A DNA stretch of 64,000 nt from Scolanthus callimorphus (taxonomy: Eukaryota > Cnidaria > Anthozoa > Actiniaria > Edwardsiidae), in the NCBI GenBank assembly GCA_033964015.1, contig CM066918.1:26681387-26745386 (forward strand). The letters run 5' to 3'. A program made the position numbers and the translations under genes. Positions 31,715-64,000 of the stretch are shown piece by piece. Within the stretch, counting starts at the first letter, position 1, and each line of letters starts with the position of its first letter. Below the pieces are notes generated by a model that searched no databases, had not been told where the DNA came from, and saw only the letters and a program-made list of their open reading frames with translations.

Positions 31715-32172
31715 GACCCCGGTTACACGGGTCCGGACGAATATTTGACCGGGCGAATTCTGACCCACTTACGGCTTCTGTTCACACGGGTCCGGCGGAA
31801 CTGGACCAATTTTTGCACGGCAAAGTGTGCAAGTTTGGGACCTGCAAAAAACAGGTACAACTTTTGACCGGTACGGTTCCGTTTTCGTACCGGACCCGTG
31901 TGAACACCGGAACCGTGCAAGTTTTGGCACACTTCCACGGTAATGGCCTGGAAACTAGCCCTCTTCAGGCGAGGATGCTAAGCTACTTTCAACCTTCAAC
32001 CAATCAGAGAACGAGACTGAAGAAGCCATGTTAGTGTTAGTTCAGTTGCACGGACCCGTGTAAACACCTCTGCAATGTGGAACAAAACTTGCACGGTACC
32101 GTGTAAACAGGTGTTCCAGGTACAAAATTCGCCCGGTCAAATATTCGTCCGGACCCGTGTAACCGGGGTCTT
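31715..32172. mobile_element. 458-bp MITE with repeated cccgtgtgaac/gttcacacggg motifs
   Basis: Ends gaccccggttacacgggtcc (31,719) and its inverse, ending ggggtctta (32,172). Many inner copies of acacgggtccgg or ccggacccgtgt. Confidence 0.8.
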
Positions 32173-32396
32173 AGAAGTGTGCCAAAACTTGCACGGTTCC
32201 GGTGTTCACACGGGTCCGGTACGAAAACGGAACCGTACCGGTCAAAAGTTGTACCTGTTTTTTGCAGGTCCCAAACTTGCACACTTTGCCGTGCAAAAAT
32301 TGGTCCAGTTCCGCCGGACCCGTGTGAACAGAAGCCGTAAGTGGGTCAGAATTCGCCCGGTCAAATATTCGTCGGACCCGTGTAACCGGGGTCTTA
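32173..32396. mobile_element. second, inverted 224-bp piece of the same MITE
   Basis: This is the reverse complement of 31,719-31,943 with only about one deleted base, lying directly after the full copy. The pair forms a large palindrome with arms of about 225 bp. Confidence 0.85.
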
Positions 32397-32814
32397 AAAT
32401 GCTATTCAGGACATGACACTCAGACCAAGAGGTCTCTGTTGCAAAAGAAAAGTCATTTGTAGGAAATGTGTTACTAAAAATAGCATGGTTAAATTCGCTG
32501 TGACGCAAATGTTTGTACAAGCTAGACGCACCGGGATGGGCGTCTGTTTTACACACAGGCCCGATATTAACTTTCTTCGAGATGTGCCATCGGCGCCTAA
32601 ATAATAAATTCTAGTCGCCAAATAGTGAAGTTTGGTCGCCATGATTGTAATCTGGTCGGCATCTTTTTCACCCGAATTAATACTGTTGACAGCTAATTTG
32701 AGATGGGCATTTTTGGAAAAACGTACAAAAAAACGTACAGTCGTCACTTGGCGACTGGGTTGAACATTTCGCTTGCCAAACTCCAATGTAGTCACCATTG
32801 GCGACTTTATGGTC

Positions 32815-39800: not shown

Positions 39801-42800
39801 TACATTCGTACATAATCACGCTAATCCGGCTAACATTCACTTAGTGTACACAGGTAAAACTCACAATTAAAACAAACTTTCATCTATATTTTTAGAATAA
39901 TTGTCAGAATTTCCTCTAACTGTCTTCAAATATTAGATATTCTTCAAAAGGAATAATTAATTCACAAGACACCGATAATCTTCCACCAGAAAATCTCAAA
40001 TCAACAGCTCTAATGGGGTTTATAAAAGGGGCTATAACGCAGAACGAGTCTACAGGGTATTGCTTTGGTGATTTTCACATGATTTTAATTCATTTAAAAG
40101 TTAACATTCATACATACACTTACACTAGTTAAAAACGTAAGGAAGCAATCTAGTTTCAGATTTACAGCGATACAGCACTAGCAGTGACTTTTTCTTTTCC
40201 AAACTAAAACAGTTCTCTGTCCCAACTTTTTCATTCACTACGCACCTTCCATTAGACCACAGTATGTCACAGTCTCCCACCAGCACTCTTGCATGACGTC
40301 ACAACCGACGCAATGACGTCATAGTTATACTGATACTGCCGCGCCTGTTGATTGGTTACAGATCGGCGACGGAGATAAGCTGATCAATGTTGTGTTGCTG
40401 AATGGAGAACGCCTCAATGTCAGAGTTCAGGTAGGTACATACATTTCAGAGAAGGTTGCACCCGGCGGCGTGACGCGTTTGACGCTTTTTGCGTCATGAC
40501 TAAGTTATATGTTTACGGTCATGTGAGAGCTCTTTACCATATTTACGAGCCAAACGTTTGAAATATAGGGGCTTGTTAAATAGTGTTAAATAATTCTTCT
40601 TCATTTGTAACTTTGCATCTTTTGTCCAGTCGGTTGCAACGGGCCAGGATCTGTACAACACAATCTCCGAGCACCTCGGACTGTCGGAAACCATCTTCTT
40701 TGGGCTTATGATCATAAAAGGTAAGAAGTAGACATGGGAAAAGCTGAATTTCCCATGGTAGAAGAATGGGAAGTGTTCGGATTTCCCATGGCTATCTATG
40801 TGAATGCCGAACACTTCCCATGCGTGTACCTTGGGAAATTCAGCTTTTCCCATGGATGGGTTTCTGCAAAAAATCCCTGTGGTACATGTACTGCCAGCTC
40901 CCCTTGCCTTTCAAAACGCGTCGTTAACTATTGATTTTTGCAAGGAACATTGCAAAATCAGTTATATTTTCAACTGCTATCGTAAGTCAGTCGAATTAAG
41001 GCAATGTAGTTGATGATGATGATGAGGAGGAGGAGGAGGACAAAAGTCATGATGCTGTTGTTGCAGAGGATGATGATTATGATGACGATTTCGTATAGGC
41101 CGTGTCTGTTCTTAGAATAGGTAATTTGCAATGATAACTACCATTGGACTGATTCTCGTTTATAGATGGCGAACATGAGTTCCTGGACCTCAATGATAAG
41201 CTCTCAAAACTCGCCAAATACGCACCGCACTTATGGAAGGATGATGTAAGTACAGTAAGGACGGAAGACTCTGCTTTTCAAAGGAACGACGGAGCGCAAC
41301 GTTTTAAACGTGCTAGTCAGGATACATACATTTGAGCACAGAGAGTGCTGCTGAATACATGAATTAATTATCGTGGTGACTGAGCCTTTTCGTTGATTTA
41401 TTTCCAGGTATCTTGTAACTCATCCCTTGTATTCACTATTTTCTTCCGGGTGAAATACTATGTGGAAAACATCTGCCTTCTACAGTAAGTCAAACTCTAG
41501 TGTGTTTAGTTTCACTGAGATATGAACCTGTCTCGATCACGACTCGAACAGAAGAGAATATCCTCTGCCCGAGCCGGGATTCGATTCCTGGACCACAGCG
41601 ATGAGTAGCGACCCTGCTCCTTTAACAATGAGCCAACCATGCTTCCCTGATCCTGACCTGGAATTCCTTGTATCTGATTTTCTAGACAGCAAAGCACACG
41701 GCACTTGTACTACCTGCAGCTGCGCAAAGATGTTCTGGAGGGGGCAATCTTTGTGCATGAGGAGACGGCCATGCTGCTTGCCTCGTACGCGCTACAGGCG
41801 GAGGTCGGGGACTACAATCAGTCTGTCCACGGCAACGACTACTTCGTACCCGAGCACTACCTACCACAAAGGGTAAGAACCATCTCACTTTAGCTCTTAG
41901 AGTGGATACGAGCTAAAGCATTAGCTTTAGGAAGCCCCCAAGTCGATCTTGTAGCAGTGGCGTAGTCAGAGCCCTTAGTTTAGTGTAGGTAAAATATAGG
42001 CAATCAACTTAGGCAATTCGCTTTAAACTCAAGAGATTTTTCACATACTTTTGTGTAGGCAAATGCCTTTTTACCTAGAAATAGCTACGTCACTGAGTAT
42101 TAAGCGCATAATGTATTTTTTTATGCCTGGCACGTGATGTCAGGGATTTTACTGGCTAAAGAATTACGTGCTTGGATTTAATTTCAAGTCTGCTCTCTCC
42201 GTATGGAATGGACAACGCCATTTCATAACTTTTTCCATTCATCGCGAGATTTGACTGATAACATTCGTTCTATTAAAGGCGAGGTAAAAGGGCAACAAAA
42301 ACGCTCAACTTGTCTCGCAACATTGTTGCGAAACGAGTTGAAGATTGAATGCTGCGCGTTTTACCACCTGACCAAAACAACTTCTCTTGCAACAAATCGG
42401 CATGTTGCAAGTTGAAAAATAGTGTTGCAGAAAGTACATTGTTGCAAAACAAATGTTGCGAGACAAATTGAGCGATTTTGTTGCCCGTTTTACCTCGCCT
42501 TAAACCCGCATCTGCCTTAGTGGAATGTCCCCTAGTAGTATCTGAAATATCAAATTGATTAAAATAGCGAATATGCCTGTCGCATTAAAACTGAAAGACT
42601 CGTCAGCAAACCTGAATGTATATTTGCACGTGGCGACGCATCCCAACAACAAAAAATAGCGCGTGTAATGTGTTGCTTGTTTCTTACCAGACCCTTGATA
42701 TTATCAGTTTGCGTGTATCGTCATCGGCTGGTGCGCCTCGTGACCATACTGTTAGTGAGCGAGTTTTTATTGTGCACTTCGCACTGTAGGTTCGTTTTCG

Positions 42801-45800
42801 AGCTGTGACGGTGCTATCGACTCCTCTCATCACTTTCCCACATGTTTTTTTGTAGATGATTTGTCTGGAAGCGTTGCGTGACCGACACAAAGCCCGGATG
42901 TGTCGGGAAGCTTTGCGTGACGACACAAAGCCCGGATGTGTCGGGAAGCGTTGTGTGACGACAGAAAGCCCGGATGTGTCGGGAAGCGTTGCGTGACGAC
43001 ACAAACCCGGATGTGTCGGGAAGCGTTGCGTGACTGACACAAAGCCCGGATGTGTCGGGAAGCGTTGCGTGACTGACACAAAGCCCGATGTGTCGGGAAG
43101 CGTTGCGTGACTGACACAAAGCCCGGATGTGTCGGGAAGCGTTGCGTGACTGACACAAAGCCTGGATGTGTCGGGAAGCGTTGCGTGACCGACACAAAGC
43201 CCGGATGCAAGGGAACCTAATTGGTGTAGAGGGGTCGTGATTTCCAGCCGTCCATTCACTCTCGATCGTGCTTCACTTTGAGAAAAGAAACGTCTGAATT
43301 CACAACGAGATTTTTCTGACAGCATTTTCAAGACAACGTACGCCACAGGGAAATTCTGCAGAAACCCATCCATGGGAAAAGCTGAATTTCCCAATGCACA
43401 CGCATGGGAAGTGTTTGGAATTCACATGGATAGCCATGGGAAATCCGAACACTTACCATTCTTCTACCATGGGAATTCCAGCTTTTCTCCGCGCCTGGGT
43501 GTCTGCCTTTTTTTTTTGCTTGAAAGAGCGTACGCTGTCATGGAAGACGAAACCATGTTTCTTGCTAACCTGACTGAGAATGACTAAGAATGACTAAGAA
43601 TGACTAAGAATGACCAAGAATGCCAAGAATGACCAATAATGATCAAGAATGACCAAGAATGACCAAGAATGACTAAGAATGACTAAGAATGACTAAGAAT
43701 GACTAAGAATGCCTGAGAATGCCTGACAATGACCGAGAATGACCAAGAATGACTGAGAATGACTAAGAATGACTGGGTCAGTGATTACGTAATGAATGAG
43801 GAAATCTTGTGGTTAATTCAGACTTGTCCTTTCGCAAAGTCAGGTACGGTCAGAGTGAATGGACAGCGACAGCCGAAATTCAGGCTAGTGGGGGGAGGCG
43901 AGCGGAGGTCTTGTAATGACAGCGACAGCCGAAATTCAGGCTAGTGTGGGGGAGGCGAGCGGAGGTCTTGTATGGACAGCGACAGCCGAAATTCAGGCTA
44001 GTGTGGGGGAGGCGAGCGGAGGTCTTGTAATGGACAGCGACAGCCGAAATTCAGGCTAGTGTGGGGGAGGCGAGCGGAGGTCTTGTAATGGACAGCGACA
44101 GCCGAATTCAGGCTAGTGTGGGGGGAGGCGAGTGGAGGTCTTGTAATGGACAGCGACAGCCGAAATTCAGGCTAGTGTGGGGGAGGCGAGTGGAGGTCTT
44201 GTAATGGACAGCGACAGCCGAAATTCAGGCTAGTGTGGGGGGCGAGCGGAGGTCTTGTAATGGACAGCGACAGCCGAAATCAGGCTAGTGGGGGAGGCGA
44301 GCGGAGGTCTTGTAATGGACAGCGACAGCCGAAATTCAGGCTAGTGTGGGGGAGGCGAGCGGAGGTCTTGTAATGGACAGCGACAGCCGAAATTCAGGCT
44401 AGTGTGGGGGAGGCGAGCGGAGGTCTTGTAATGGACAGCGACAGCCGAAATTCAGGCTAGTGTGGGGGAGGCGAGTGGAGGTCTTGTAATGGACAGCGAC
44501 AGCCGAAATTCAGGCTAGTGTGGGGGAGGCGAGTGGAGGTCTTGTAATGGACAGCGACAGCCGAAATTCAGGCTAGTGTGGGGAGGCGAGCGGAGGTCTT
44601 GTAATGGACAGCGACAGCCGAAATTCAGGCTAGTGTGGGGGAGGCGAGCGGAGGTCTTGTAATGGACAGCGACAGCCGAAATTCAGGCTAGTGTGGGGGA
44701 GGCGAGCGGAGGTCTTGTAATGGACAGCGACAGCCGAAATTCAGGCTAGTGTGGGGGAGGCGAGCGGAGGTCTTGTAATGGACAGCGACAGCCGAAATTC
44801 AGGCTAGTGTGGGGGAGGCGAGCGGAGGTCTTGTAATGGACAGCGACAGCCGAAATTCAGGCTAGTGTGGGGGAGGCGAGCGGAGGTCTTGTAATGGACA
44901 GCGACAGCCGAAATTCAGGCTAGTGCGGGGGAGGCGAGCGGAGGTCTTGTAATGGACAGCGACAGCCGAAATTCAGGCTAGTGTGGGGGAGGCGAGCGGA
45001 GGTCTTGTAATGGACAGCGACAGCCGAAATTCAGGCTAGTGTGGGGGGAGGCGAGCGGAGGTCTTGTCACGCCACAACAGCGACAGCCGAAATTCAGGCT
45101 AGTGTGGGGGGAGGCGAGCGGAGGTCTTGTCACGCCACAACAGCGACTGAAAACCGAATCTTGTCGCGCACTATCACCACGATGCTTTCTTGCACATTCA
45201 CCCCTTAACGTCGGACAAAATGCAATCTGCTTGGCACTTCTTGATTTTGAGTAATAAGAACTGGTTCTCTATCATTTATAAACTATCCCATGTGTTTTTC
45301 CAGGCCATCGCGAAGCTGACTGCATCGTACATCCGTAACACGTTACCTCAACTCCATAAAGCTCATACAGGAATCAGTGACGCGCAAGCGGAAATCGAAT
45401 ACCTCAAGGTGAGAGAAGATGATGATGTTGATGAAAACAGTATTGCATTTTCCTTCCTCGCCGGGGGTTCGAGGACCCTGGAAAATTCCAGGGGAGGGGT
45501 CTGTCTAAGCCCTGGAAATTACAAGGGGAGGGGGTCTTTCTAGGCCCTGGAAATTCCTAGGGGCAGGGGTCGAGGACCCTTGGAAATTCTGGAAATTCCA
45601 GGGGGAGGGGTCTAAGCTGTGGAAAAGGGGGTGTTTAAGCCACTTGGAAATTCCAAGGTTATGACGATGGATGTTCACAATTTAGCAACGATTATTCCTG
45701 ATGTCTTTTCCGTTAAACTGTTAACCGTTCTTCTTTCGATGTTATTTCCATTTGCTTCTCCTAACGCGCACTTCGTTCTTATTTCTGCAGGAGGCGCAGA

Positions 45801-48800
45801 AGTTGCAAGAATATGGAATTATTTTCAATAAAGTATCAAAGGTGAGTTCTGTTCCGTTCTGTAAGTACTAGAATCGTTGTGATTATGGTCCATACAGGAG
45901 TTTGACTCATGTCCTGATCTAGTATTTGTTTGTCCCTTTCAGTACAAGAAGGACAAGCGAGGGAGTTACAGCCTCGGCATCAGTGTTCGTGGGCTAATCG
46001 TATACGAGGTTGTAGTATTTGATAATAATATTGAGATCTCACCCACCCGCACTAGCTCGGTAACCATGGTTACCCGCACAGTAAGCACCCAGCACCAACA
46101 AGGGCCTTAGGGACATTTATTGTTGTGTTGTTGCTGAGAGCTATAGAGACCAGCAGCTCTGTACCGCCACTCGTAAGCACGAGTGGGCTTCGGGAATTTG
46201 AGTCGAGCGCTTCCGAGCGGCTCAGTTCGGGAATTTGAGTCGCGCGCTTTCGAGTCGCTTCGGGAATTCGAGTCGGGCGCTTATGAGTGGTGCCACAGGG
46301 TTGCTTGGCCGGCGCTTATCTCTCAGTTTGCCAAGCCAAAATTTCACGTGACAAAGCAAGGAAAGTATAACTCGATCGTAAGCGCTTCAAAAATACAACA
46401 ATAATTGTTCCTACGGCCCGTGCATCCAGCGCCGCCTCTGCGTGAGCTGAATAAATGTCAAGCACCCCGCGATAGAGGGAATTGTGTTAGCGGCGAGAAA
46501 AAGCAGCGGGGAAAGGGCTGTATTTAGTTTAGTTTTGTCTCTAAATGACAGTTGACACTTGCAATTCCAACTCGCTAGTGTAAACGAGATGCAAATCCAG
46601 TAGGATTGCTCTGCACGTTTTTGTCAAATGGCATGAAGTTACAAATTGAAACCAGTGCAACATCGCGCGACAAAAGTCGCCGAGGTCGCTCTGAAATCTT
46701 GTTTACACTAGCATTTTTATAGTTGCAGCTTGTGCGCGAGAAAAATCTATGTGACAGATGCCACAATAATTGCAAGTGTAGACAAATAAAAATGTAGTTA
46801 TCATTTCTATTCGCTGACAGTCTTATTTGATGTTCTTGCAGGAGCGCGGGCTTGTCAAGAGTCCGGTGTTTCGTCACCCATGGCAGAACATCAAGAGAAT
46901 GGCCTTCCACGTGAGTAACGCTAAGATAGGTAACGCTACTAGATAGGTAACGCTAGATGGAAAACACTATCGATGGTTCCAGACAGCTACGTTTCAAGAG
47001 GCTCCCCAAACCCCTCCCTGTTCCAGACGTTTGTTGAAAAATCTTGTGAAGCCTGAAATGAGCCCGTGACCTTGTAACGAAAAAAGAAATCTGAAAGATT
47101 TGTTTGTCACGGGCTTCCTGTGTCGATACGCGCGCGCCAAAAATGGCGGAAGCATTTCATCCAATAAGAAACTGCCCTTGCAGATCAATCGCGGCGTAAT
47201 AATATTTCCTCTCTTCTTTATTTCAGAGACGTAGATTTTTCATCGAAGCGCACGGTCCACCCGATACGTCGAAAATCGTCTTATACACAATTAGCTATAA
47301 AAAGTAAGTCAGCAACGAGACAGATTTCAGATGACTGTCGTGAGTAATTCGCAATCGCTTTGTAATCACTACCGTCGATTGCATCTACAGTTCCACACGC
47401 TGGACCAAAATATGTTCTGTCGGCAGTTGAACTTCAAAGTTTGACCGCCCATGCGTGAAGCTTTGTGACGCTCTTGACTGGAAAAGGTAAAAAGTTCATT
47501 TGCTTTATTTCTTCCTGACCAGAAAAACCATGAAGCTACCAGCATATTAACTATTTTTCAAAGATTATTATTGAAAAGAAATTGCGGACTTCAGTATTGT
47601 GATGAAAACGTTCAAGTTTTCCGTCGAAAGTTTAAAATTTCACGTGCCGTTTTTTTTCGAGCGTGTGGACGGGTAAATGCAATCGACGGCATAGGTTTTT
47701 TTCAGAATCACTTTGCGACTGGTTTCACGACAGCCATTTGAAATCCGCTCATGAAATACGATGGACTCGAGCGCGTTGCTAGGACACCAAATTACTTGAA
47801 ACTCATCATTTCACCATAACAACTTTAAACGATATAGTAAATGAAAATTCGTTATCGATTCACTTCTGTTTTTTTTTTTCAATTTGCTTCTGATATATTA
47901 AGAAAACATATCGATCTATATATATGAGATCTATATACTCATACAAAACTGAGATCCGATCATTCACTCGGGAAATACCTTAGGAATTATGAAAAGGATG
48001 ACGTGTTTTATACAATGCGCGGGTTTATTTGGTGAGTATCAATTGTGAGAGTAAGGGTTTGTTTTCATACGACATAAGCGACGTAAGCATAAGAAGAACG
48101 GAAGCCTTNNNNNNNNNNNNNNNNNNNNNNNNNNNNNNNNNNNNNNNNNNNNNNNNNNNNNNNNNNNNNNNNNNNNNNNNNNNNNNNNNNNNNNNNNNNN
48201 NNNNNNNNATACCTAAAGAATCTAGTAGCAGAAAGACGAAACCACAGAGACGAACAACTGACAGCAAGTATAAAACTCAAGGATGGGAGAAAGTGAGAGA
48301 AGCAATTGAAAGAGGAACGTTCAGTGGTCAACCAAAAGACGACAAGAAAAGTTTCAAACCGCTTGAAAGACAACTGCCTAAGGATCAACAAAGTACTGAC
48401 CGATCCTCTGGATGGAAAAAGGTCTTATCCGCCATCCACAAAGGCAAAATTAAAGAACAGGACGATAAGGAAAAAGACAAAACCATCAAAGAAAAAGCAG
48501 CAGGACAACTCCTTCAAGATTGAAAAAGCTAAAGGGCGCACTGCCAAAGAGAATGTTTGGAGAACAGATCAGTGACCAAAATGTGAAGGTTGCTTGTAGA
48601 CCTAGGTCCGTTGGGTGGCATAAAGTTCGTGCAGCAATTGACCAAGGGAAATTCCGATCATATGTTTTGAAAGAACAATACCGAAAAAGACACATCTTGT
48701 TGCTCGCGAAAAAGCGAAAAGAACGTCGACTTGGTTGTTATGCTCGATCTCCAGGGTGGAAAAAAGTTAAATCTGCGATTGTTGATGGCAAATTCAAAAC

Positions 48801-51800
48801 CTACAAACTGCAACAAGAAGAAAGATCAAGAAAAATCATGATATTTATGTCGAAACAGCAGGAGCGTCGATTAGCTTGTAATGCACGTTCTTCCGGTTGG
48901 AAGAAAGTCAAGTCTGCAATTGCACGGGGTAAATTCAGGGCGTATATCTTTAAAGAGCAAGAAAGAACTAAGAAAATAGTAGAATTCATCGAAAGACGGC
49001 AGAAATGGAGGGAACGGTGTTTTGCAAGATCTTCAGGTTGGAAAAAAGTCAAAGCCGCCATTGCATCAGGAAAATTAAGGGCGTATGTCTTGCAAGAGCA
49101 AGAGAGGACAAAGAAAATCCTGCAATTCATGAACAGACGGCAACACAAGAGGTCTCAATGCTGTGCAAGATCGCCGGGCTGGAAAAATGTCAAGGCCGCA
49201 ATTGCTCTTGGGAAATTCAGAGCATATGTCTTGCAGGAAGAAGAAAGAACAAAGGAAATCCTGCAATTCATGGACAGACGGCTACAGAAAAAGGCCCAAT
49301 GCAAGGCAAAATCTTTGGGTTGGAAGAAATTGAAGGGCGCTATAGCATTTGGAAAATTCAGAGCGTATATATTACAAGAAGAAGGCAGAAAAAAGGAAGA
49401 TTCTGGAATTCATGGAACGACGACAAAAGCAAAGAGCGCAATGCTATGCAAGATCGTCAGGCTGGAAAAAAGTTAAGGCTGCCATTGCGTGTGGAAGGTT
49501 CAGAGCGTATATATTACAGGAACAAGAACGAGCTAGGGAAATCCTAGAATTCATGCAAAGACGTCAGCATAAAAGGCACAGTGCTATGCTACATGTTCTG
49601 GCTGGAAGAAAGTAAAGTCTGCAATTGCTTTTGGGAAATTCAGAGCATATACCTTGCAAGAACAAGAGAGGGCACGAAAAATTTTGGAATTTATGGAAAG
49701 ACTACAGAACAATCGAGCACAATGCTATGCTAAGTCAACAGGCTGGAAGAAAGTCAAGTTTGCCATTGTTCTGGGGAAATTTAGCGCGTACGTTCTACAA
49801 GAACAAGAAGAACCAGGAAAATCATACAGTTCATGGAAAGACGACAGCAAGAAAAGTCCCAATGCAATGCAAGGTCTTTGGGCTGGAAGAAAGTCAAGGG
49901 CGCTATAGCATTCGGTAAATTTCGAGCATGTGTCTTGCAAGAAGAGGAGAGAACACGAAAGATTTTGCAATTCATGGAGAGACGTCAGCATAAAAGGGCC
50001 ACATGCCATGCGAGGTCGTCGGGCTGGAAGAAAGTCAAATGTGCGATTGCATTTGGAAATTTCGAGCGTATATGTTCAAAGAACAAGAGAGAACAAGAAC
50101 AATTCTCGAATTCATAGAAAGACGACAGAAGCAAAGAGCGCAATGCTATGCAAGATCGTCAGGCTGGAAAAAGGTTAAGACTGCTATTGTATTTGGAAGG
50201 TTCAGAGCGTATATATTACAGGAAGAAGAACTAACTCGGAAAGTCCTAGAATTCATGCAAAGACTTCAAAAGAAGAGAGCGCAGTGCAACGCAACGTCTT
50301 CTGGCTGGAAAAAAGTCAAGGCCGCTATTGCGTTTGGAAAATTCAGAGCTTATATAATCCAAGAGCAGGAAAGAACAAGGAAGATCTTAAAGTTCATGAG
50401 AAAACGGCAAAGGAAGAGAGCGCAATGCAATGCTAAGTCTGCGGGCTGGAAGAAAGTGAAGTCTTCAATTGCACTTGGAAAGTTTAGTGCTTATGTCTTG
50501 CTACAACGAGAAAGAGCAAGGAAAATTTGCAGTTTGTGGAAAGACGACAGAGGAAGAGGGCACAATGTCTGGCAAACTCCCCAGGTTGGAAGAAAGTCAA
50601 GTCTGCGATTGCACTGGGGAAATTCCGGGCATATATTTTGCAAGAGCAAGAAAGAAGTAAAAGAATCGTGGAGTTCATGAAGAAAAGACAATTGAAGAAA
50701 GCCAGATGCCGTGCAAGGTCGCGGGGCTGGAAGAAAGTGAAGGCCGCCATTGTGTTTGGGAAATTCAGGGCGTATAACCTGCAGGAACAAGAACGAACAA
50801 GAAAGATCCTAGAATTTATGGAAAGATGTCAGACGAAAAGGGCGCAGTGCTTCGCAAAATCGTTAGGCTGGAGGAAAGTCAAAACGGCGATAGCTCTGGG
50901 GAAGTTCCATGCACATGTCTTACAGGAACAAGAAAGAACAAAGAGAATCCTCGAATTCATGAAAAGGCGACAGCAAAAAAGGGCACATTCTATTGCCAAA
51001 TCTTTGGGTTGGAAAAAAGTTAAGGCCGCAATAGCACTTGGAAAGTTTAGAGCGTACATCTTGCAAGAAGAAGAAAGGACAAAGAAGATTCTGGAATTCA
51101 TGAAAAGAAGACAACAAAAGAAAGCCAGCTGCTTCGCGAAGTCGGAGGGCTGGAAAAAAGTCAAGTTTGCTATTGCTATGGGGAAGTTCAAAGCGTACAT
51201 CTTGCAAGAACGAGAGAGAACAAGAAAAATCCTAGCATTCATTCAAAGACGTCAGCGAAAAAGCGCGCAGTGTTATGCAAGATCGTCGGGTTGGAGAAAA
51301 GTGAAGGTCGCTATTGCGTTTGGAAAGGTCAGAGCGTATATCTTGCAAGAACAGGAAAGAACAAAGAAAATCCTTGAATTCATGGAACGACAGCAGTCAA
51401 AGAGGGCGCTTTGCTGTGCAACATCTCTAGGGTGGAAAAAAGTCAAGTCTGCAATTACACTGGGGAAATTTAGAGCGTACACTTTGCAAGAACAAGAGAG
51501 AACGAGGAAAATCGTACAATTTTTGGAAAGACGGCAACAGAAGAGGGCACAATGCGTCGCAAATTCTTCAGGTTGGAAGAAAGTCAAGTATGCTATCGCC
51601 CTTGGAAAATTCCGAGCCTATATCTTGCACGAGCAAGAAAGAACTAAGAGAATCCTAGAATTTATGGAAAGAAGCAAATGGACAGATCTAGATGCCATGC
51701 AAGATCACCGGGTTGGAAAAAGCTGAAAGCCGCCATTGCATTTGGGAAATTTAGTGCATATAACCTCCAGGAACAAGAGCGAACAAGGAAAATCCTGGAC

Positions 51801-54800
51801 TTCATGGAAAGACGTCAGAAGAAAAGAACTCAATGTTATGCAATATCGCCTGGATGGAAAAAACTCAAGACTGTAATTGCTCTAGGGAAATTCCATGCAT
51901 ATGTCTTGCAGGAGCAAGAAAGAACAAGAAGAATCCTCGAATTCATGAGAAGGCGACAGCAAAAGAGTGCACAATGCAATGCTAAATCTCTGGGATGGAA
52001 GAAAGTTAAGGGTTCAATAGCATTGGAAAATTCAGAGCCTACATCTTGCAAGAAGAAGAAAGGAAAAAGAAGATCGTGCAATTCATGAAAAGAAGACAGC
52101 AAAAGAGTGCGCAATGTAATGCCAAATCTCTGGGATGGAAGAAAGTTAAGGGTGCAATAGCATTCGGGAAATTCAGAGCATACATCTTGCAGGAAGAAGA
52201 AAGGACAAAGAAGATCGTGCAATTCATGAAAAGAAGACAAGAAAAAAGTGCACAATGTAATGCTAAATCTCTGGGATGGAAGAAAGTTAAGACTGCAATA
52301 GCATTCGGGAAATTCAGAGCATACATCTTGCAGGAAGAAGAAAGGAAAAAGAAGATCGTGCAATTCATGAAAAGAAGACAGCAAAAGAGTGCGCAATGTA
52401 ATGCCAAATCTCTGGGATGGAAGAAAGTTAAGGGTGCAATAGCATTCGGGAAATTCAGAGCATACATCTTGCAGGAAGAAGAAAGGACAAAGAAGATCGT
52501 GCATTCATGAAAAGAAGACAACAAAAGAGTACACAATGCAATGCTAAATCTCTGGGATGGAAGAAAGTTAAGACTGCAATAGCATTCGGAAATTCAGAGC
52601 ATACATCTTGCAGGAAGAAGAAAGGACAAAGAAGATCGTGCATTTCATGAAAAGAAGACAACAAAAGAGTACACAATGCAATGCTAAATCTCTGGGATGG
52701 AAGAAAGTTAAGGGTGCAATAGCATTCGGGAAATTCAGAGCGTACATCTTGCAGGAAGAAGAAAGGACAAAGAAGATCGTACAGTTTATGAAAAGGCGAC
52801 AAGAAAAGAGTGCACAATGCAATGCTAAATCTCTGGGTTGGAAGAAAGTTAAGGCTGCAGTAGCATTCGGGAAATTCAGAGCCTACATCTTGCAGGAAGA
52901 AGAAAGGACAAAGAAGATCGTGCAATTCATGAAAAGAAGACAAGAAAAGAGTGCACAATGCAATGCTAAATCTCTGGGATGGAAGAAAGTTAAGGCTGCA
53001 AACATTCGGGAAATTCAGAGCGTACATCTTGCAGGAAGAAGAAAGACAAAGAACGTGCAATTCATGAAGAATACAAGAAGAGTGCACAATGCAATGCAAT
53101 CTCGAAGAAAAATGCAATAGCATCGAAAAGACAAAAGAAGAAAGGACAAAGAAGACGTACATGAAAAGAAGACAACAGCGACGAGCTTATTGCAAAGCGA
53201 AATCCTCTGGCTGGAAGAAGGTGAAATCAGCTATATCTCTTGGAAAATTCCATGCCCACGTACTACACGATGAAGAAAGAGCGAGAAAAGTGGTTGAATT
53301 TTTGGAAAAACGAGGGTACCATCAGACAAAGTGCCGAGCTAAATCGGTTGGATGGTGGAAAGTGCGATCTGCAATTGACAGAGGACTCTTTAAAGAATTC
53401 CATAGAAAGACAGCGGAGAAAACAGATACTGTGTCACAATTATTTATTGACATGGGAGTGTCAGACAAATGGAAACAAGTAAAAACGGCAATGGAAAGAG
53501 GGACCCTTAAAGATCTAATGGATGACAAGGAAGTACCAGTTTCTCAAACTGATCAGACTAGCACTGAATCCAAACCAAGTACTCAAAAGCCAGAAGAAAG
53601 TATGTTTTCCAGATTTTGGTCTAAGGTAACAGAAAACACGGCAGATACAAAGCACGATAGCCAAAAGAACGAAGTATGTCTGACAAAACACAAACTGATG
53701 TACCACAGGCAAGTGTAGTTGCTGGAAGGTTGGGTGTAACGAAAGACCTTCATAAGGAGGGAAAACAAGAAACGAAAACCCAAGCACCGTCGACTGAGGA
53801 AGAAGAAACTTCCTTATCTTCTTTACTTGGTCGATTCAGATCCTCTTTCCTTTCGGACAAGCCTGATGCAAAGAAGCAAGAAAAGGCTAAATCGAAAGCT
53901 AGCATTGAAACAAAGCACAGATCATCTCCTAGAGATGCGCGAAGGAAGCGAAAAGATAACACAGGGAAATCAAGTAAAAAGCAGCCACCCTCATACGGGT
54001 ATGGATTTAGGACGTTTGAAATTAGACAAGATGCTATAAACCAGTTTGTTAACACAACTGAGCAACTGGTGCAAAAAATAGAAACTAAGGAGGAGAGAAG
54101 AGCAAGAAAAAGAGATGAATTAAGACAAAAATCTCAACCAAAGTCTGACATCAAGATGAGAAATGTTTCTGGCAAAGACAGATTTATTGTTATTGTGAAA
54201 AAAGTAATAAGAGCAAACAAAGTCGCCAAAATGGCTCAACCCGCTGAAAAATCAAATAAAATAACGGGTAAAGAAAAGTTTATTTTGGCCGTGAAAGCAG
54301 TAATAAGAGCAAACCGTATAGCCAAATCCAGTCAGAAAGGTCCAACCATCAAAGGAAAGGCAAGATTCATTGTTGTGGTTCGAGCGGTAATTCGAATGAA
54401 TCGCATGGGTAAAACTAGTCAAGGGGACAAGTTGCGTGGAAAAGCAAGATTTGTTTGGGCTATTAAGTCTGTCATAAGAGCAAACCGAATGGCCCAGGAT
54501 GGAAAGAAATTATGCGGAAAAGAACGAATTCTGTCGAGCTGTTATGAGCTGATGCGAGCTGTTATTAGAGCAATCGAATGAGCAAAGGAAGAAGGAACTG
54601 GGAAAGCCAGATTTATTGCAGCTGCTAAAACAATCATCAAGACAAATCGTTTAGCAAAAGCCGAAAGGGAGAAGAAGTTATCTGCAAAGGAAAGATTTAT
54701 TTCAGCTGTGAAAGCGGTTATAACAGCTAATAGGCTAAACAAGAAAGAAGGAAAGAAAGGAACTGGAAAGGCCAGATTTATTGCGGCTGTTAAAACAATC

Positions 54801-57800
54801 ATCAGGACAAATCGAATAACAAAAACCAGGAGGGACAAGAAAATATCTGGAAAGGAAAAGTTTATTTCCGCTGTGAAGACGGTCATAAGAGTCAACCGAC
54901 TGGAAAAGACTGAGCAAGGAAAGAGAGTAACTGGAAAGGCCAGATTTATTTGGGCTGTGAGGGCTATCATTAGAATACAACGCGCTGCCGCGAAAAAGAA
55001 GCATTCACATAAGCAAGTTGCTGCTGAAAGTCGGCATGCAAAACCACAAGACTATGAGTCTGGGTACAAAGGACCATACCAACGTCGTTTTGAAGCCAGA
55101 GAGGCCGAAAGATTGCGAAGGGACAATCGTAAACCAGAAGTCAAGTCTACGTTTAACATACAAGAGTCACCGTTGGACGGAATCAGCGAAGAGGCTCTGT
55201 TTGCAGTGGTTGAAGAAGATTCGAAAAAGGCTGCTGCAATGTTAGATTACAGAGGTCCTTATCAGAGAAAGTTTGAGGCGAGGGAGGCGGAACGAAAACT
55301 AAGTGCCACATTACGGAGGCAGAGAACCGAACAGCGTTTACCTAAGAAGAAAGGAAGTAAAGAAGCTGACCCGTGGTCTGAACGAATGGCCCGTATTAGT
55401 CAAAAGATGTATGAAGCGGAACGGACGAAGTCTGTAGATGTGGGCAAACAGGCTGGCAAAGAACCTGGCAAAGAACCTGGCAAGGGAAGTGAACATAAAG
55501 TAAGGAAACCTCTTCAACGCCAACCCTCTTCAAAAGAAAAGGCAACTGGAAAAGCAACGTTCGTCTTGGCTGCTAAAGCTGTCGCAAAAACAGAGAGCGG
55601 AGCTAGACAAGCAGGGTCTTCAGCTCAAGTGAAAACAGGTAGAGAAAGGGCAACCACAGGTTCTGCTGATCAATCAACCGCCAAAAAGCTACCGAAACTT
55701 AAAGAAACTGTTATACAAGCGGAGCAGCTAAAACAGCTTGCACATCAAGAATTTGTAAAGCAAGATATTTTACCAGGAAAGAAAGTGGATGCAACAAGCG
55801 CCTCTGGTTTTCCGAAAACTGTGGCAGAAAATGCTGAGTTTGAGGAAACGAAGAAGGAGAGACCACTAAGGCCTTCGCCTCTTCTACCGGAAGAGGTTCT
55901 GATATATATGAATATAAAGGACCTTACCAATTGCGATTTGAAGCAAAAGAAGCTGAAAGGCTAAAAAGAGAAATGTCGAAACATCAAGACAGTCGAGGCA
56001 ATCGTCAATCCCATGACAACGACAATGCCGTAGAGGTTGGAAAAGAAGAAGAACGGGAAACTCAAAGGTACAAAGGACCGTATGAAACACGCTTTGAAGC
56101 AAAGGAAAGACAAAGACAGCTTGCTAAATTGAAAGAACAAAATGCTGCTTCAAGTCGTCTAAAAAGAGGTTCCAGCCGAGACGAACATTCTGATGTGTGG
56201 TCTGAGAGAATGCTTCGAGTCAACAAAATGGCGAAAGAGGCGGAAAGAATGAAAGCTGGAGACTCTACGCAGAATGAAAAATCAAGTTCGCCTAACATAT
56301 CTCGACCTGTAGCAGCAACTCGGGAAGCAAGATTAGCGAGTCAGATTAGCATAAAGAGGGACAAGGACAAGAAAGACGAAAAGCAAGTAGTGGAACCCCA
56401 ATTAGTAAAGTTGAAAGAAAAGGAGCAATTGCCTGAACAGTCTCACTCGGAGCAAAGTACAAGGAGTGAGCTTGGTGTTGACTGCTCCAAGGCTGCTCCA
56501 AGTCGACTAAAAAAAGGTTCCAGCCGAGACGAACATTCTGATGTGTGGTCTGAGAGAATGCTTCGAGTCAGCAAAATGGCGAAAGAGGCAGAAAGAATGA
56601 AAGCTGGAGACTCTACGCAGAATGAGAAATCAAGTTCGCCTAAGATATGTCGACCTGTAGCAGCAACTCGGGAAGCAAGATTAGCGAGGCAGATTAGCAC
56701 AAAGAGGGAGAAGGACAAGAAAGACGAAATGCAAGTAGTGGAACCCCAATTAGTAAAGTTGAAAGAAGAGCAATTGCCTGAACAGTCTCACACGGAGCAA
56801 AGCACAAGGAGTGAGCTTGGAGTTGACTGCTCCAAGGCTGCTCCAAGTCGACTAAAAAAAGGTTCCAGCCGAGACGAACATTCTGATGTGTGGTCTGAGA
56901 GAATGCTTCGAATAAGCAAAATGGCGAAAGAGGCAGAAAGAAACAAAGCTGAAGTCTCTACGCAGAATGGGAAATCAAGTTCACCTAAGATATGTCGACC
57001 TGTAGCAGCAACTCGGGAAGCACGCTTAGCAAGGCTGATAAGTACAAAGAGGGAGAAGGACAAGAAAGACGAAAGGCAAGTAGTGGAACCCCAATTAGTA
57101 AAGTTGAAAGGAGAAGAGCAATTGCCTGAACAATCTCACGCGGAGCAAAGCACAAAGAGTGAGCTCAGAGTTGACAAAGGACCCCATCAACGCGAATTTG
57201 AGGCTAAGATGGCTGCATTAAAAAAAGAACAGCAATTGATGGCCACTACTTATCCTGAAGAGCGAAAGGGACAAATAAAAAAGCATCAAATTCATCAAGA
57301 GTCAAAAGATAGTAGTCAAAACTTTGTTAGAAAGCACGAGATTGATGACACATTTAAACAACAACAGGATTTACCAGAAGAGCAGCACCTAAGACAGCAG
57401 GAAGTGAGCCAAAGTTCACCTGAACAGGCTGGAATGTCTGGCACCACGAGAAGAGAAGCTGGACCGATAAGTAAATCTGGACAATCTTCGCAATCTACAA
57501 GCGTGCATGCAGAAAAAGGAATGGGATCTCCCCTTGGAGCAAGTGAGAATGAGGAGAAGCAGCCAAGTGAAACTGGGGAGGTGTCCAAGGAGAACGAAAA
57601 GGAAGATACAAAACCTCCGCCTAGTAAAACTGAAAAGCCTAAAGAAACTACTACATCGGAAACTGTAGCTGGGCTTATTAAGTGGGGGAGATCATGGTTT
57701 TCTTAGGATAGAAGTCATACCGTGATTGCAAAAAACAACAGGGTTTAAGCAGTCGCCCTTTCAGAAAAAAATAAATTCGAAAATCTGCGTCGTGGTTAGT

Positions 57801-60800
57801 AGTACCGCCAAGCGTACTTCACCAATGATCAAGGGAAGAAAAGTCGCGATTGTGGATTCGTTATGTTGCTATGACAACGAACAGCTCTACCCCTCCCCTC
57901 CTAACATCTCTGCAGCTGTCACGTGAACAAGTTGTTGTAGCAAATATCTGCTTTTATCATTGCGACTGAAGTTCGAGGTCATGCATTGCGTGTATGCGTG
58001 CGCTTACGGCGAGATTTAAAGATAGACCTAAAGAATGAACAGCGTGATAGAAAATCGCTTGAAGATGAGTCACTTTGATTCAGCCACGCAATAATATTAA
58101 GATTATAATGAACGTGCTGCTATAAAACCCGGTAAGCAGTGCTAGCCTTTTAGGGATATCCCATACTGTTTTTGGATCTCCCGCGCATACATATATATCT
58201 GAGAATGCAGTAAATGTAAATAGCGCAGTGACTATACCCGGTTAAAATATTTAAGATTGGAAGGTGAAAATTTTTTTGTTTTTATCTTCTTGTTTTGTTT
58301 ATATGTAAGTACACAACGTAATTTGGCATTCTTTAATTGTGATTTCTTAATATAAATAAAGCTATAGAAGTCTACAGAATGTAGTATTAAAACGAATCGA
58401 CGCCCCACAACTCAAATGCCTTAAGGGGTGAAATTATAAGATGTAAAAAAGTCGAATTATTTATTATGAAATGAAATCAACGGCTTCTTGCATCTTTCAT
58501 CTTTTTTTTGCAAGCGTTGTACATTGTAGTGGAGCTACTGCTCTAAGCTAATTATTCTTCAAAGAAATAAAAACAAATACAGAAATATGCAAGAGGCCGT
58601 TGGCTACTGTAAAGCTAAAAGCAAACATGTAACTTTGTAAATAAAATCTAGATGAAATTCATGCTTTCTTCTCTTTGTCGTCTTCTGGACAGTTTCTGTT
58701 AAGGTCCCCACCCAACAATAACACATCTGTTTATATTTCATTTCAAAGATTTTATTGCTTTTTATATTATTACATTTCAATGATAATTTACTAATGGCAT
58801 TTCCTAATGTGACAGGATTACATTCCAATTGAGATCCCAAAACTTAACGGAAGCTTTGGCCTCAATGTTACGGTAAGAATACTGAATACTAAAAGACACT
58901 TACGACTTATAATGAATACTTATACTGAATACTGAGTGAATACTGAATACTAAGGATTTGAATGCTAAGAAGGGTTCTTACTGCGTGGTTAAACCCACTA
59001 TCCCGTAAAACTACTTTAGTGACCTTTGGATTTGATGAATGCAGATTTGGCATTTCGTATTTTGTCTCGTGTTTTTCAGCTCTATTCATGCAGCAACTAT
59101 TACAAATGGCGAGTTAAAAGAAAACGTTTTTCAAGTTTGATAAAAACTGCAGCCCTTTAGGAACACTGGAAAATAAATAGCAATCTCAGAACTAATAAAC
59201 AAGTCTTCGTTTGGGTGGATCTTGTTTGTTTTACTCTAGTTGCGAATATTAAGATTAAAAAAATCGCTGAGGGATTCTTCCATTGTAAACAATATTATAC
59301 CCAATTATATTGTATTAAAGTGTCACCGTATTGTAAATTGAAACTAGCAGGGAAGAGAGAGGACTTACACAAGAAACAACATGCCAAATTAACAAGAATA
59401 TCAACAAAAGGAAATGGAAATTAATGTTTCAGGCAAATTGCTAGATGAATGAAACTTTGTCATTTACGAGGAACTCCAATCGATGAGATTTCCACAGCGC
59501 TTATGAATTATTAATTGGTACAAACACCTGCGTATAGGTATGAAAAACAAAGTTCTTCACAATTTCTAACTCCTTCGTTTGGATTCATTGCTCCATATCA
59601 GTGGGCAACGATGAAACTTACCCCCGATTTCGGCTAACGGAGATGGTAACACTGATTGGTTTAGTCTAGAACAAATCCAAGAAAAGCAAAACCTCTTATC
59701 AGATGATTCACTCCATATAATATCTTATGTGTCTGGAGTTACAATTCTGTTGATTCCGAGTTATTGTGTTTTTCAACAATTTTTCTCCATAGAATATTTT
59801 TTGAAAGCTTTAAAGGTTCTGTTTGTGAATATTTTTAATGATTACCTGAAAGGACCAACAGCTGCATTAGTTCTCGTTGCTGAATTATTAACAATGAAGA
59901 ATACGGAATGGAAAACATTCTGCCGAATTCACAACCTTATCTAGATCAATCGATAATTCCTTCAGTTATCAAATCAAGAAATTAAGAGGAAAATGATGAT
60001 TTATTATCAGAAAAAGTCATCAGGACTTAACAGCCTTGTGCGCTATAGCGTTTGACAAACATCGGAAACTTCAAAAACTTTGCTGTCAAAACTAATAACC
60101 TTCGACACCCCGAATTTTTGTTTGAAGTAAATATTTTGCACCCCAAAATGAATTGGAACTATCAGAAACTGCTACAATAAAATACATCATAATTTATCTC
60201 TCTTGAAGTTTTTGTCTAAAGAATTGTTGTTCTTCTATGTACGTTCTGTGTGAGTCATTGAAATAAAATTGGTCATCGTAAAATTTAAAAAAGCCATAAG
60301 GAATTCAATAACATGATTCGGGATTTGGATAGGTAGCAAATGAGGCAAAGACATTTCGTGTTTTCAGAATATTCCATCATTATGCGTTTTTGAGAAATAT
60401 CAGAGTTGAAAATGTAACTTTTTCTTATACGCTACTTTGAACGAATGACCAGCCTTTCTATCCTAAGATAGGTAACTATCTTTGTTATATCAACGGTAGA
60501 ATTTTGTGACTAATTGTTTCCTTTTTTCCTATAAGATCGACTAATTATGTTTGTTTTTAATACTCGGACTCTTGACAAGCATAAAGGACGCCTTCGAGAC
60601 TGAGCGATAATCGAAAATTGTGCGAGCAAATGAAGGGTTGTCATTTGTATATAAATGCTGCTGATTTTTGCAAATGAGATGGATGTCTTATTTTTGGCGC
60701 AACTCATTTGGTCGCCGCTATGAAAATACTCAAGAAATTTTGTTAATTGTCAGATGTTATCGACAATGTAAAATAAAGTACTCAAAGTCAACAGAATAAC

Positions 60801-61570: not shown

Positions 61571-64000
61571 GTAGGTGACATGCAACATAATCCCGGACCA
61601 GACAAAGCCAATGAATGGCATCCTCTATGCTCTCTTATGTTGCACAGGAAATGGTCACGAATTTCATCGAAACATTTTACTGCTAGACCTAACCCTCTTA
61701 GCGAAAACCTTCGAGTAACATAACCCCTTGAATAGTAATCCTCTTAGGGACTTACTGCTGTCTCGTGTTGTTTTTTTAAACGGGGAAAATTGAGGATAGC
61801 TATTCTGGCAGATCCTCAGTTGATGAGGTTAAATATTTGCGTAGCTGAGTAGCTCATCTTGGTGGTAGACGCCGCATTAGAGCGACTCACTAATAAGAAT
61901 TTTTCCTGCTGCGTTATCTATAGCGCACCCAATGTTCTCTGTGCAAGATGCATCTAAACATCGCGCATGTTGATTTGTTTATTGAGAGAGTGAGTGAGGA
62001 TTCGAGCCCAACTGCCGTAATTTCCGGCCTTCCTCCTCAAGGCAATACAACTAAACTTGTTCAATCATTGTGTGAAATTTATTTATTTATCTTAAGATTT
62101 TCGGAGTTTTCGTCTTTCATTATAGCCTTCTCAGAGGTCTTCTCTAGCATTTAAATAGTATATTCAATGGATTTAGGTTATGCGTTTTGTGGTATTTGAA
62201 CACCACTATAACCTCATCGTCGCAGGTGGATAAGATAGTAATTATATTCGAGTGCCGCCTGGATATCTGTAGTATGCTTAAAACCTTGGCTAGAAACGTA
62301 AATATTCTATTAAACTCGCTGCATTTGTAATGACTCTTACAAATTTTTGTTTTTCTCATTTCCTGTAGTTGTTATATTTGGTTTTCTTTGTTGGAACTTA
62401 CAGTACTACGAGAGCTGTAGTGTACTAATCGCTAACATATCTTTATGCTATTCAACTATCAATCGATTTGAGATTCAAAGATAGACCGGCTTTCCACTCA
62501 GAAAGTCTTCCAAGGCATTAGTTAATGTTATTAGTCCCTTTGGTCCAACCACAGTTTGTAAGGTTAAAAGGATTCTACTTTGAAGGAGCGTCCTTCGGAG
62601 CCGCTGCAATAACTTAATTTCTCATTGGAATTTCAACCTAGTGAAGTCTTTTTTCCGGCATATATGCTAAGTCATGGTAACAGACCATAAGGAATACTTT
62701 TATCTAGTGTTTTTTCTTTCTAATCTTCGGCGTTCGTGTTATTTCGAGGCAACAGTCGAGCCACTGGTAATCGTATATACGATTGACCTCAATTTCTTGC
62801 TCAAATTCATCTGAATTAAGTAAGTAGTCTGAAGGAAGCTTCACAAGAAGATCCAACATCCCCTCATTAAATATGAATGTGGTCAGGGAAATGCAAATAC
62901 TATATTCTTAAACACTTAAAAACTCTGGTCGCCCTCGAAGAATCCCATGTTTCGATTTCTCATCTTGATTCTGCTTCTTCACTTTTCAAGTGTCTTTTCC
63001 AAAAACTATAAATTCTGACAAAAGGGAGCAACGTGTTTGTATTAATATTTTGGAAGTTTCTCAACTACACAAAGTACTGCTTTTAATTTTTCAACGAAGG
63101 TATTTTTGTTTGCTGAGTTTTCCTTTAGTTTCCTTTCGTCATAGTGATCAAAATCGGACGTTTGGTCAGCAATCCAAGATAGCATATCTTCAAAGCAGTT
63201 TAGTTGAATATATTATTCCCCTTGAACTGTTTGGTGTAATTCAATGTGTTTGTAATACAGAGCACATACCAATATTAAAGTTGTCTCTGTACAGGAAATT
63301 AAGAAAACGAAGTTCCTTGGTTATGTACACATTTTCGTAGTTTTGTACTTGTATTATACATACAATGTTTCTTCCAAATCGTTTCGTTTCTCTTACTAAC
63401 TAGACAATTAAACAACACGAGTAAAAACTTCTGGCTTCCATGAATTGTGTTCTGAATCACCACCATGTCGAGTCGGATATTGATTATTCGGTACATCTGC
63501 TAGCTGTTTGCTCTGCTATATGTATATAACAAAACCCAATCAAAACTTTGGTAGGCCCTTTCTTAATGCTTTATCCAAAATATTCTCGCTGCGAAAGAAA
63601 GTAGAGTAATTTCCCCTCAAAGAAATGCAAAAAACATCTGCATTGTGGACATGAATTACTTTAATTCTAAGGAGGTGGACACATTAGAAATTCTCGTGAA
63701 AGAATGCAAGTTTCTTTAATAAAATCGTGCAACACACAATTATACAATGAATCATTTACCCAAGGCGAAGCATTTTTATATAATGTGCTACCATATCTAG
63801 GGCCTTCACGCTTCCATTATGGTTTTTCAGAGATAGGGAATCAAAACAAGTCGTGACGGTCGCTCGCATCGTAGCGAGAACGTGAAAACTTCCCGATGAC
63901 AGGCCCGAAAACTGCTTCGCAAAAGCACTAATTTTGGCCCAAATAGGGATTCACTTTTCAGGTGTTTAATTTTTCTAGTTCACCACACCGACATTACTTA
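61571..64000. other. intron to right edge, no exon found
   Basis: No continuation of the PDZ domain could be found before 64,000, so the intron exceeds 2.4 kb. No transposon ends recognised. Confidence 0.45.

What the first reader, a model, noticed from the sequence alone, without database searches (positions are those of the whole stretch)
48209..57706. Giant intronless exon encoding an unrecognised basic tandem-repeat protein
About 37 copies of a 47-residue unit with fixed Trp, GKF.AY, LQE.ER, RRQ and one Cys, followed by two other repeat classes, make a chain of roughly 3,000 residues that I cannot assign to any family. Each unit pairs a Trp-led amphipathic basic segment (GWKKVKAAIAFGKF) with a charged helix (EQERTRKILEFMERRQ). 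This recalls calmodulin-, lipid- or polyanion-binding helices. Joined to a FERM domain, it could be a long membrane-cortex or filament-binding tether. Sequence repeats are seen; function is inference.
Basis: partly seen in the sequence, partly recalled or inferred. Interest (0 to 1): 0.9.

Follow-up and report, generated by a model that had tools for sequence, protein, structure and literature searches.

The report
Giant basic helical-repeat exon, cnidarian genome
Inside a jellyfish-group relative of the PTPN13 gene lies a 9.5-kilobase coding block for a huge, strongly basic protein made of some 37 copies of a 47-residue unit with no convincing relative found; it looks real and long conserved, but its function and its link to the surrounding gene are unproven.

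Summary
The repeat array is real: about 37 Trp-led units at 48284-53500, 33 of them regular with a 47-residue period, followed by nine units of about 28 residues (a tenth is broken) and a 115-residue unit three times. It is not one open frame here: the stitched 3,168-residue chain needs 13 one-base frame changes, 11 of them losses, probably assembly errors. In 23 undamaged units all 253 pairs have pN below pS (means 0.195, 0.776), so the protein was held while silent sites saturated. No convincing Pfam, PDB or protein-database relative was found; both protein searches scored only about 8,000 candidates.

The surroundings are a medusozoan PTPN13-like gene: FERM exons upstream (61-64% identical to Clytia, Hydra, Rhopilema), PDZ exons downstream. 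Four related medusozoan proteins lack the repeats. Coding signal runs to a stop with no strong donor, so the block looks like a last exon, of a FERM-plus-tail isoform or a nested gene. A 100-N gap hides its start.

Best guess: a polycationic helix chain binding Ca2+/calmodulin or acidic surfaces; motif support is weak to moderate.

The parts
40362..41484 (+). FERM F1 exon pieces of the PTPN13-like gene: 40362-40430, 40630-40720, 41166-41245, 41408-41484
   Evidence: tblastn of related proteins; splice sites read by eye and donors scored; Pfam FERM_N E 0.0037, below the curated cut-off
41686..45841 (+). FERM F2 exon pieces: 41686-41872, 45304-45408, 45791-45841
   Evidence: Pfam FERM_M E 4.8e-14 and 0.011; tblastn; frames
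45943..47303 (+). FERM F3 exon pieces: 45943-46008, 46842-46910, 47227-47303; the last F3 helix is not found in the window and may lie in the gap
   Evidence: tblastn; frames and donors. The donor at 46009 is weak (score -4.3)
48109..48208 (.). run of 100 N (assembly gap, true length unknown) directly before the repeat block; the only N run in the window
48209..57706 (+). repeat coding block, 3,168 residues when stitched over 13 frame changes, to a TAG stop at 57704-57706
48281..53580 (+). class 1: about 37 Trp-led 47-residue units, 33 regular (48613-53349), degenerate at both ends
52977..53208 (+). garbled stretch of 232 bases inside the array: several indels against neighbouring units, perhaps a mis-assembled unit
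54171..55001 (+). class 2: nine units of about 28 residues (GKARFIxAVKxVIRxNRxAK); a tenth, near 54510-54590, is broken
55059..57255 (+). class 3: five GPYxxxFEAK-like segments (read by eye; two caught by pattern) and a 345-base (115-residue) unit three times at 56144-57175
57770..57775 (+). AATAAA, 64 bases after the stop codon (11 such hexamers in 57707-64000, so a weak sign)
58816..61570 (+). PDZ exon pieces 58816-58872 and 61489-61570; the second piece matches the second PDZ best in two of four relatives and a late PDZ in the other two, so which PDZ it is stays open

Best explanation
The block is a real, old protein-coding repeat array in a medusozoan cnidarian. It is the last exon either of an alternative FERM-plus-tail isoform of the PTPN13-like gene or of a gene nested in that gene's intron. 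It encodes at least 3,170 residues (about 368 kDa, net charge about +450). Shown: repeats, protein-level constraint, base composition, location, stop codon. Predicted: each 47-residue unit is mostly one long helix, ended by a short linker. Inferred: the chain is an extended multivalent scaffold. Each class 1 unit offers a 1-5-10 calmodulin pattern (V5, I9, F14 after Lys-Lys), and most class 2 units a 1-5-8-14 pattern. At low Ca2+ the basic helices would sit on acidic surfaces (phosphoinositides, microtubules or actin); at high Ca2+ calmodulin would take them off. If a FERM head is spliced on, it would hold the chain at the cell cortex.
For: 253 of 253 unit pairs have pN < pS in frame. FERM and PDZ exon pieces of one gene family flank it on the same strand, in the right order. 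Coding-like, purine-rich sequence runs to the stop: the last 161 bases are 0.65 purine (1 of 281 outside windows reaches this), and 57404-57703 is 0.627 (0 of 149). The strongest donor-like site in the block scores 4.0, against up to 8.2 in the FERM exons. AATAAA follows by 64 bases. The 1-5-10 pattern is at one column in 32 of 33 units (48 of 1000 column-permuted arrays do as well); with two Lys/Arg before it, 30 of 33 (3 of 1000). The 1-5-8-14 pattern is at one column in 6 of 9 class 2 units (0 of 500 shuffles; 39 of 2000 column-permuted arrays). The half-IQ pattern, listed as 'IQ-like' in PMC6245490, is in 26 of 33 class 1 units (shuffled mean 6.4). K[VL]K[AG]AI, as in the CaMKII peptide RRKLKGAILTTML (PMC2987815, table passage seen), is in 11 of 33 units, KVKGAI itself in 4. 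AlphaFold2: helices 2-10, 14-42, 47-89, 94-140. Of two class 2 stretches, one gives a weak Pfam hit to Spc110_C (E 0.0072) and one to PACT (E 0.49); calmodulin binding to pericentrin/PACT is described in PMC6559791 (passages seen).
Against: Calmodulin patterns are poor classifiers: 49-71% accuracy for the 14 known motifs in PMC6245490 (passage seen), the source of the definitions. The 1-5-10 signal is barely above column-permuted arrays, nine patterns were tried per class without correction, the version with two basic residues was made after looking, and the patterns that picked the units already ask for the residue classes at 5 and 9 (class 1) and at 1, 5 and 8 (class 2). Class 1 units hold no 1-5-8-14 pattern and no full IQ motif (0 of 33 each). 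Equally weak or stronger Pfam hits go to unrelated families, nine single class 2 units hit nothing, and PDB searches gave nothing credible. The model is poor (mean pLDDT 63.7, pTM 0.28). An in-phase donor-like site at 57404 (score 2.6, as weak as this gene's weakest plausible donors) would allow splicing to the PDZ exon. Four related proteins lack the repeats. No transcript data.
Confidence: 0.32

Rival explanations
1. Polyanion or filament binder without calmodulin: helices with about +9 per unit bind the acidic surface of microtubules or actin in tandem, like the trypanosome MARP repeat proteins (recalled).
For: Net +328 over the 47-mer part, pI 11.0. Exact 47-residue spacing and long predicted helices suit lateral binding along a filament. 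Charged positions are held as well as hydrophobic ones.
Against: No convincing relation to a filament-binding repeat in Pfam or the PDB. Held W2, V5, I9, F14 and F31 are more hydrophobic than a purely electrostatic binder needs (inference).
Confidence: 0.27
2. Structural self-assembling repeat (solenoid or filament), perhaps cross-linked through the one conserved Cys per unit, serving as a cell- or capsule-structure protein and encoded by an independent nested gene.
For: 14 non-polar positions besides Ala in the consensus, fixed length, Cys at position 42 in 29 of 32 units. The related FERM-PDZ proteins lack the array, which suits a separate gene.
Against: AlphaFold2 gives no confident packing (pTM 0.28), though the alignment had only nine rows. 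No start codon or signal peptide can be seen because of the gap.
Confidence: 0.2
3. Internal exon: the array is an insertion between FERM and the PDZs of one very large FERM-repeat-PDZ protein.
For: Same strand and order. Donor-like sites at 57404 (score 2.6, in phase with the PDZ exon at 58816) and 57543 (3.5, out of phase), within the range of this gene's weaker donors (2.6-4.2). Odds raised from 0.12 to 0.14 on re-checking, because the in-phase site had been overlooked.
Against: Coding-like sequence continues for 100 codons past 57404 to the stop. About ten donor-like sites of this strength are expected per 9.5 kb in 10-40 kb; the block has seven.
Confidence: 0.14
4. Decayed array (pseudogene): the frame changes are real and the protein is no longer made.
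For: 13 frame changes and one stop.
Against: 11 of 13 are single-base losses. Among three damaged near-identical units, two show a lost letter of a short run (GGG to GG, AA to A) and the third is unclear. The GPCR at 2461-3556 also breaks, beside six A. Decay should bring many substitution stops (expectation); one stop was found, and it appears to lie between compensating shifts. Constraint is seen in every pair of clean units.
Confidence: 0.06

Closest known systems
Medusozoan PTPN13-like FERM-PDZ proteins (Clytia P0001, unnamed P0002, Hydra P0003, Rhopilema P0004)
   Same: FERM 61-64% identical, PDZ exon pieces of the same kind, same order
   Different: They have only a short linker between FERM and the first PDZ and none of the repeats
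CaMKII-type (1-5-10) and 1-5-8-14 calmodulin-binding helices
   Same: Spacing of hydrophobic anchors and basic neighbours; K[VL]K[AG]AI as in CaMKII in 11 of 33 units
   Different: Here in dozens of tandem copies; no binding shown; the strict basic 1-5-10 (three Lys/Arg before) is not met because W2 takes the first place
Pericentrin/AKAP450 PACT and Spc110 C-terminal calmodulin-binding domains
   Same: Class 2 gives weak profile hits (E 0.49 and 0.0072, one of two stretches each)
   Different: Below Pfam cut-offs, no better than unrelated hits in the same list; tandem units rather than one terminal domain
Giant repeat proteins coded by one exon (AHNAK) and trypanosome MARP repeats (both recalled)
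   Same: Very long arrays of short charged units
   Different: Resemblance of plan only, from memory, not tested here

Membership tests
PTPN13/FRMPD2-type FERM-PDZ gene (surroundings) | FERM domain most similar to PTPN13 proteins | tested here: met
   1585 hits at E <= 0.001; of the 120 listed nearly all are named PTPN13, best 64% to Clytia; tree of 15 FERMs groups it with the four medusozoans, support 1.0
PTPN13/FRMPD2-type FERM-PDZ gene (surroundings) | PDZ domains after the FERM | tested here: met
   Two PDZ exon pieces on the same strand; any others lie outside the window or were not found
PTPN13/FRMPD2-type FERM-PDZ gene (surroundings) | N-terminal KIND and C-terminal phosphatase domains (listed for Montipora P0006) | tested here: inconclusive
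   No KIND in + strand frames of 3.5-12.8 and 14.3-44.0 kb, but a domain cut by introns could be missed; the C-terminal end is beyond the window; P0001-P0004 list neither domain
Repeat block as part of that gene's product | Repeats present in related proteins or spliced to FERM exons | tested here: not met
   0 of 120 fetched proteins hold the unit pattern (120 of 1585 fetched); splicing is not testable here
Calmodulin-binding helix, 1-5-10 | [FILVW]xxx[FAILVW]xxxx[FILVW] | tested here: met
   32 of 33 class 1 units at one column; permutation 48 of 1000; definition from PMC6245490
Calmodulin-binding helix, 1-5-8-14 | [FILVW]xxx[FAILVW]xx[FAILVW]xxxxx[FILVW] | tested here: inconclusive
   6 of 9 class 2 units; 0 of 33 class 1 units
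Calmodulin-binding protein | Ca2+-dependent binding measured | not testable with these tools
   Needs an experiment
IQ motif | [FILV]Qxxx[RK]Gxxx[RK]xx[FILVWY] | tested here: not met
   0 of 33 class 1 and 0 of 9 class 2 units; only the half-motif ('IQ-like') is common, 26 of 33 class 1 units
Known helical solenoid repeats (HEAT, ARM, TPR) | Profile match or packed model | tested here: not met
   No such family among the class 1 Pfam hits shown (one search shows 25 of 52 families); pTM 0.28
DUF7590, Spt5-NGN, SMC_hinge, M157 (Pfam hits that reach the curated cut-off) | Match over the domain | tested here: not met
   Whole-protein bits reach cut-offs and DUF7590 matches 9 of 9, Spt5-NGN 8 of 9 three-unit stretches at E <= 10, but best stretches cover only 33-42 of 84-130 profile positions (M157: 90 of 256), and scores are probably summed over repeats

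The most novel reading that the evidence does not exclude
A previously undescribed repeat family in which a medusozoan polarity-type gene (FERM-PDZ, PTPN13-like) gained an alternative giant last exon, so that one locus makes either a PDZ scaffold or a cortex-anchored tether with more than 40 calmodulin-sized basic helices, acting as a Ca2+/calmodulin-gated multivalent electrostatic switch and calmodulin store.
Probability: 0.1. Interest if true: 0.75.

Novelty: new variant of a known kind. Interest (0 to 1): 0.46.

Why it matters
The synonymous sites of most units are saturated while the protein is held, so this is not a young satellite that happens to be open but an old, constrained repeat with no relative found in two capped searches of a 5.8-billion-protein database. 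If it is spliced to the FERM exons, a conserved polarity-type scaffold gained a tail of about 370 kDa in one lineage. If it is a nested gene, it is a new giant cytoskeletal or calmodulin-binding protein. The two repeat classes suggest a simple binding test.

Tried and rejected
Rejected: reading the block as an intact exon; filing the units under DUF7590, Spt5-NGN, SMC_hinge or M157 (partial matches, though above cut-offs); IQ repeats; a solenoid family; NCBIfam (only far-below-cut-off hits); viral or prokaryotic origin (0 relatives from 46 and 73 pattern matches); the 550-residue open frame at 12756-14408 as the N-terminus of the FERM gene (P0001-P0004 begin at the FERM). Limits: searches scored only about 8,000 candidates each and only within set length ranges, so a relative could be missed; the FERM search with the same tool worked. 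The structure model was not sent to fold search because of its low confidence. A second model (class 2) could not be queued. Papers: no paper holds both PTPN13 and cnidarian; none holds KIND domain, FERM, PDZ and cnidarian; none holds tandem repeats with calmodulin-binding repeats or staurozoa with tandem repeat protein; PTPN13 with Hydra gave 39 papers, 20 listed, none on the animal's gene by title. Only the held library was searched. Odds changed on re-checking: best explanation 0.33 to 0.32 and internal exon 0.12 to 0.14, because an in-phase donor-like site (57404) had been overlooked.
Full report
What is there. Bases 48209-57706 on the + strand code for a repetitive chain, but in pieces. 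Stop-to-stop frames are at most 412 codons in the 47-mer array and 620 in the whole block. A codon-usage path that allows frame changes gives 3,168 residues with 13 changes (11 single-base losses, 2 gains) and one stop; the stop appears to lie between two further compensating shifts. Among the three damaged units of the near-identical stretch (51993, 52415, 52555), two show a lost letter of a short run against sister units and one is unclear. An independent gene in the window, a rhodopsin-type GPCR at 2461-3556, also breaks next to a run of six A. I therefore read the breaks as assembly errors; raw reads were not available.

The units. Class 1 has 37 Trp-led units (36 by pattern plus one inside a doubled spacing), 33 of them regular with a spacing of 140-142 bases apart from one garbled stretch, degenerate at both ends of the array. 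Class 2 has nine units of about 28 residues, GKARFIxAVKxVIRxNRxAK, and a tenth that is broken. Class 3 comprises five GPYxxxFEAK-like segments read by eye and a 345-base unit three times. The 47-mer part has pI 11.0 and net charge +328 over 1,642 residues.

Constraint. I compared the 23 units without a frame change; the other ten of 33 were dropped because their spacing is not 141 bases. All 253 pairs have pN below pS (means 0.195 and 0.776). With the reading frame shifted by one or two bases the pattern is lost (36 and 78 of 253). On average synonymous sites are saturated, so most units are old; a few at about 52-53 kb are near-identical and recent.

Relatives. Several Pfam families reach their cut-offs on multi-unit stretches (Spt5-NGN, DUF7590, SMC_hinge, M157), and DUF7590 and Spt5-NGN recur in 9 and 8 of 9 three-unit stretches. 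The matches cover a minority of each profile and are most simply read as scores summed over repeats. The PDB gives none (only chance hits). Two searches of 5.8 billion proteins, in two length ranges, give none at E <= 0.001 and 0.01, each limited to about 8,000 candidates. The same tool finds 1,585 relatives of the FERM, so animal proteins are in that database. Viral and prokaryotic contigs give none.

Surroundings. Ten FERM exon pieces between 40362 and 47303 join to a domain 61-64% identical to Clytia, an unnamed protein, Hydra and Rhopilema, and 41-49% to the ten other animal proteins compared. The tree groups the window with these four (support 1.0), outside them (their own clade 0.996). 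That fits another medusozoan line such as Staurozoa or Cubozoa, but the species is not identified. PDZ exon pieces lie at 58816-58872 and 61489-61570. The second piece matches the second PDZ best in P0002 and P0004 and a late PDZ best in P0001 and P0003, so its rank is open. The last F3 helix of the relatives is not found in the window. The four medusozoan proteins read have only a short linker between FERM and the first PDZ, and none of 120 fetched PTPN13-type proteins (of 1,585) contains the unit pattern. The repeat block and the PDZ pieces share one stretch without N, so the block is not merely a scaffold misjoin across the gap.

How it ends. Coding-like sequence runs to TAG at 57704-57706: the last 161 bases are 65% purine (1 of 281 outside windows), and 57404-57703 is 62.7% (0 of 149). 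AATAAA follows at 57770, but 11 such hexamers lie in 57707-64000. Two donor-like sites lie near the end: 57543 (score 3.5), out of phase with the PDZ piece, and 57404 (2.6), in phase with it. Using 57404 would make 100 coding-like codons intronic. Whether the first exon of this product is the FERM or something hidden in the gap cannot be told.

How it may work. AlphaFold2 on three units with nine rows gives helices over most of each unit with short linkers and no confident packing (mean pLDDT 63.7, pTM 0.28). The calmodulin patterns come from PMC6245490 (passage seen). The 1-5-10 pattern sits at V5-I9-F14 in 32 of 33 units, barely better than column-permuted arrays (48 of 1000). With two preceding basic residues it is 30 of 33 (3 of 1000), but that version was made after seeing the data. 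The 1-5-8-14 pattern is in 6 of 9 class 2 units (39 of 2000 permuted arrays). The patterns used to pick units already ask for some of these positions. Full IQ motifs are absent, while the 'IQ-like' half-motif is in 26 of 33 class 1 units. The core resembles the CaMKII peptide listed in PMC2987815 (table passage seen) in 11 of 33 units. PMC5898786 (two passages seen) associates 1-5-10 and 1-5-8-14 with Ca2+-loaded calmodulin. This makes calmodulin binding the most specific testable idea, not a finding. Binding to acidic filaments or membranes without calmodulin is nearly as likely.

Verdict. Real, old, constrained and unassigned, but broken in this assembly, cut off at its 5' end, and not shown to belong to the FERM protein.

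Noticed in passing
2461-3556 +: Rhodopsin-family GPCR (7tm_1, E 9.7e-19 for 2461-3180) in one block, split by one frame change beside a run of six A.
   Followed up: partly
12756-14408 +: 550-codon open frame with no Pfam hit at E <= 1; probably not part of the FERM gene, since the related proteins begin at the FERM.
   Followed up: partly
43858-45130: 58-base tandem repeat, 22 copies at 97% match, in an intron of the FERM gene; 44001-46000 is GC-rich (0.53) and G-skewed.
   Followed up: no
31723-32416: Inverted repeat: the same translated sequence on opposite strands; longest exact inverted match 200 bases, starting at 31736.
   Followed up: partly
P0001-P0004 (proteins): These medusozoan PTPN13-like proteins list no KIND and no phosphatase domain, unlike the coral Montipora P0006: loss in that line, or incomplete models.
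   Followed up: partly
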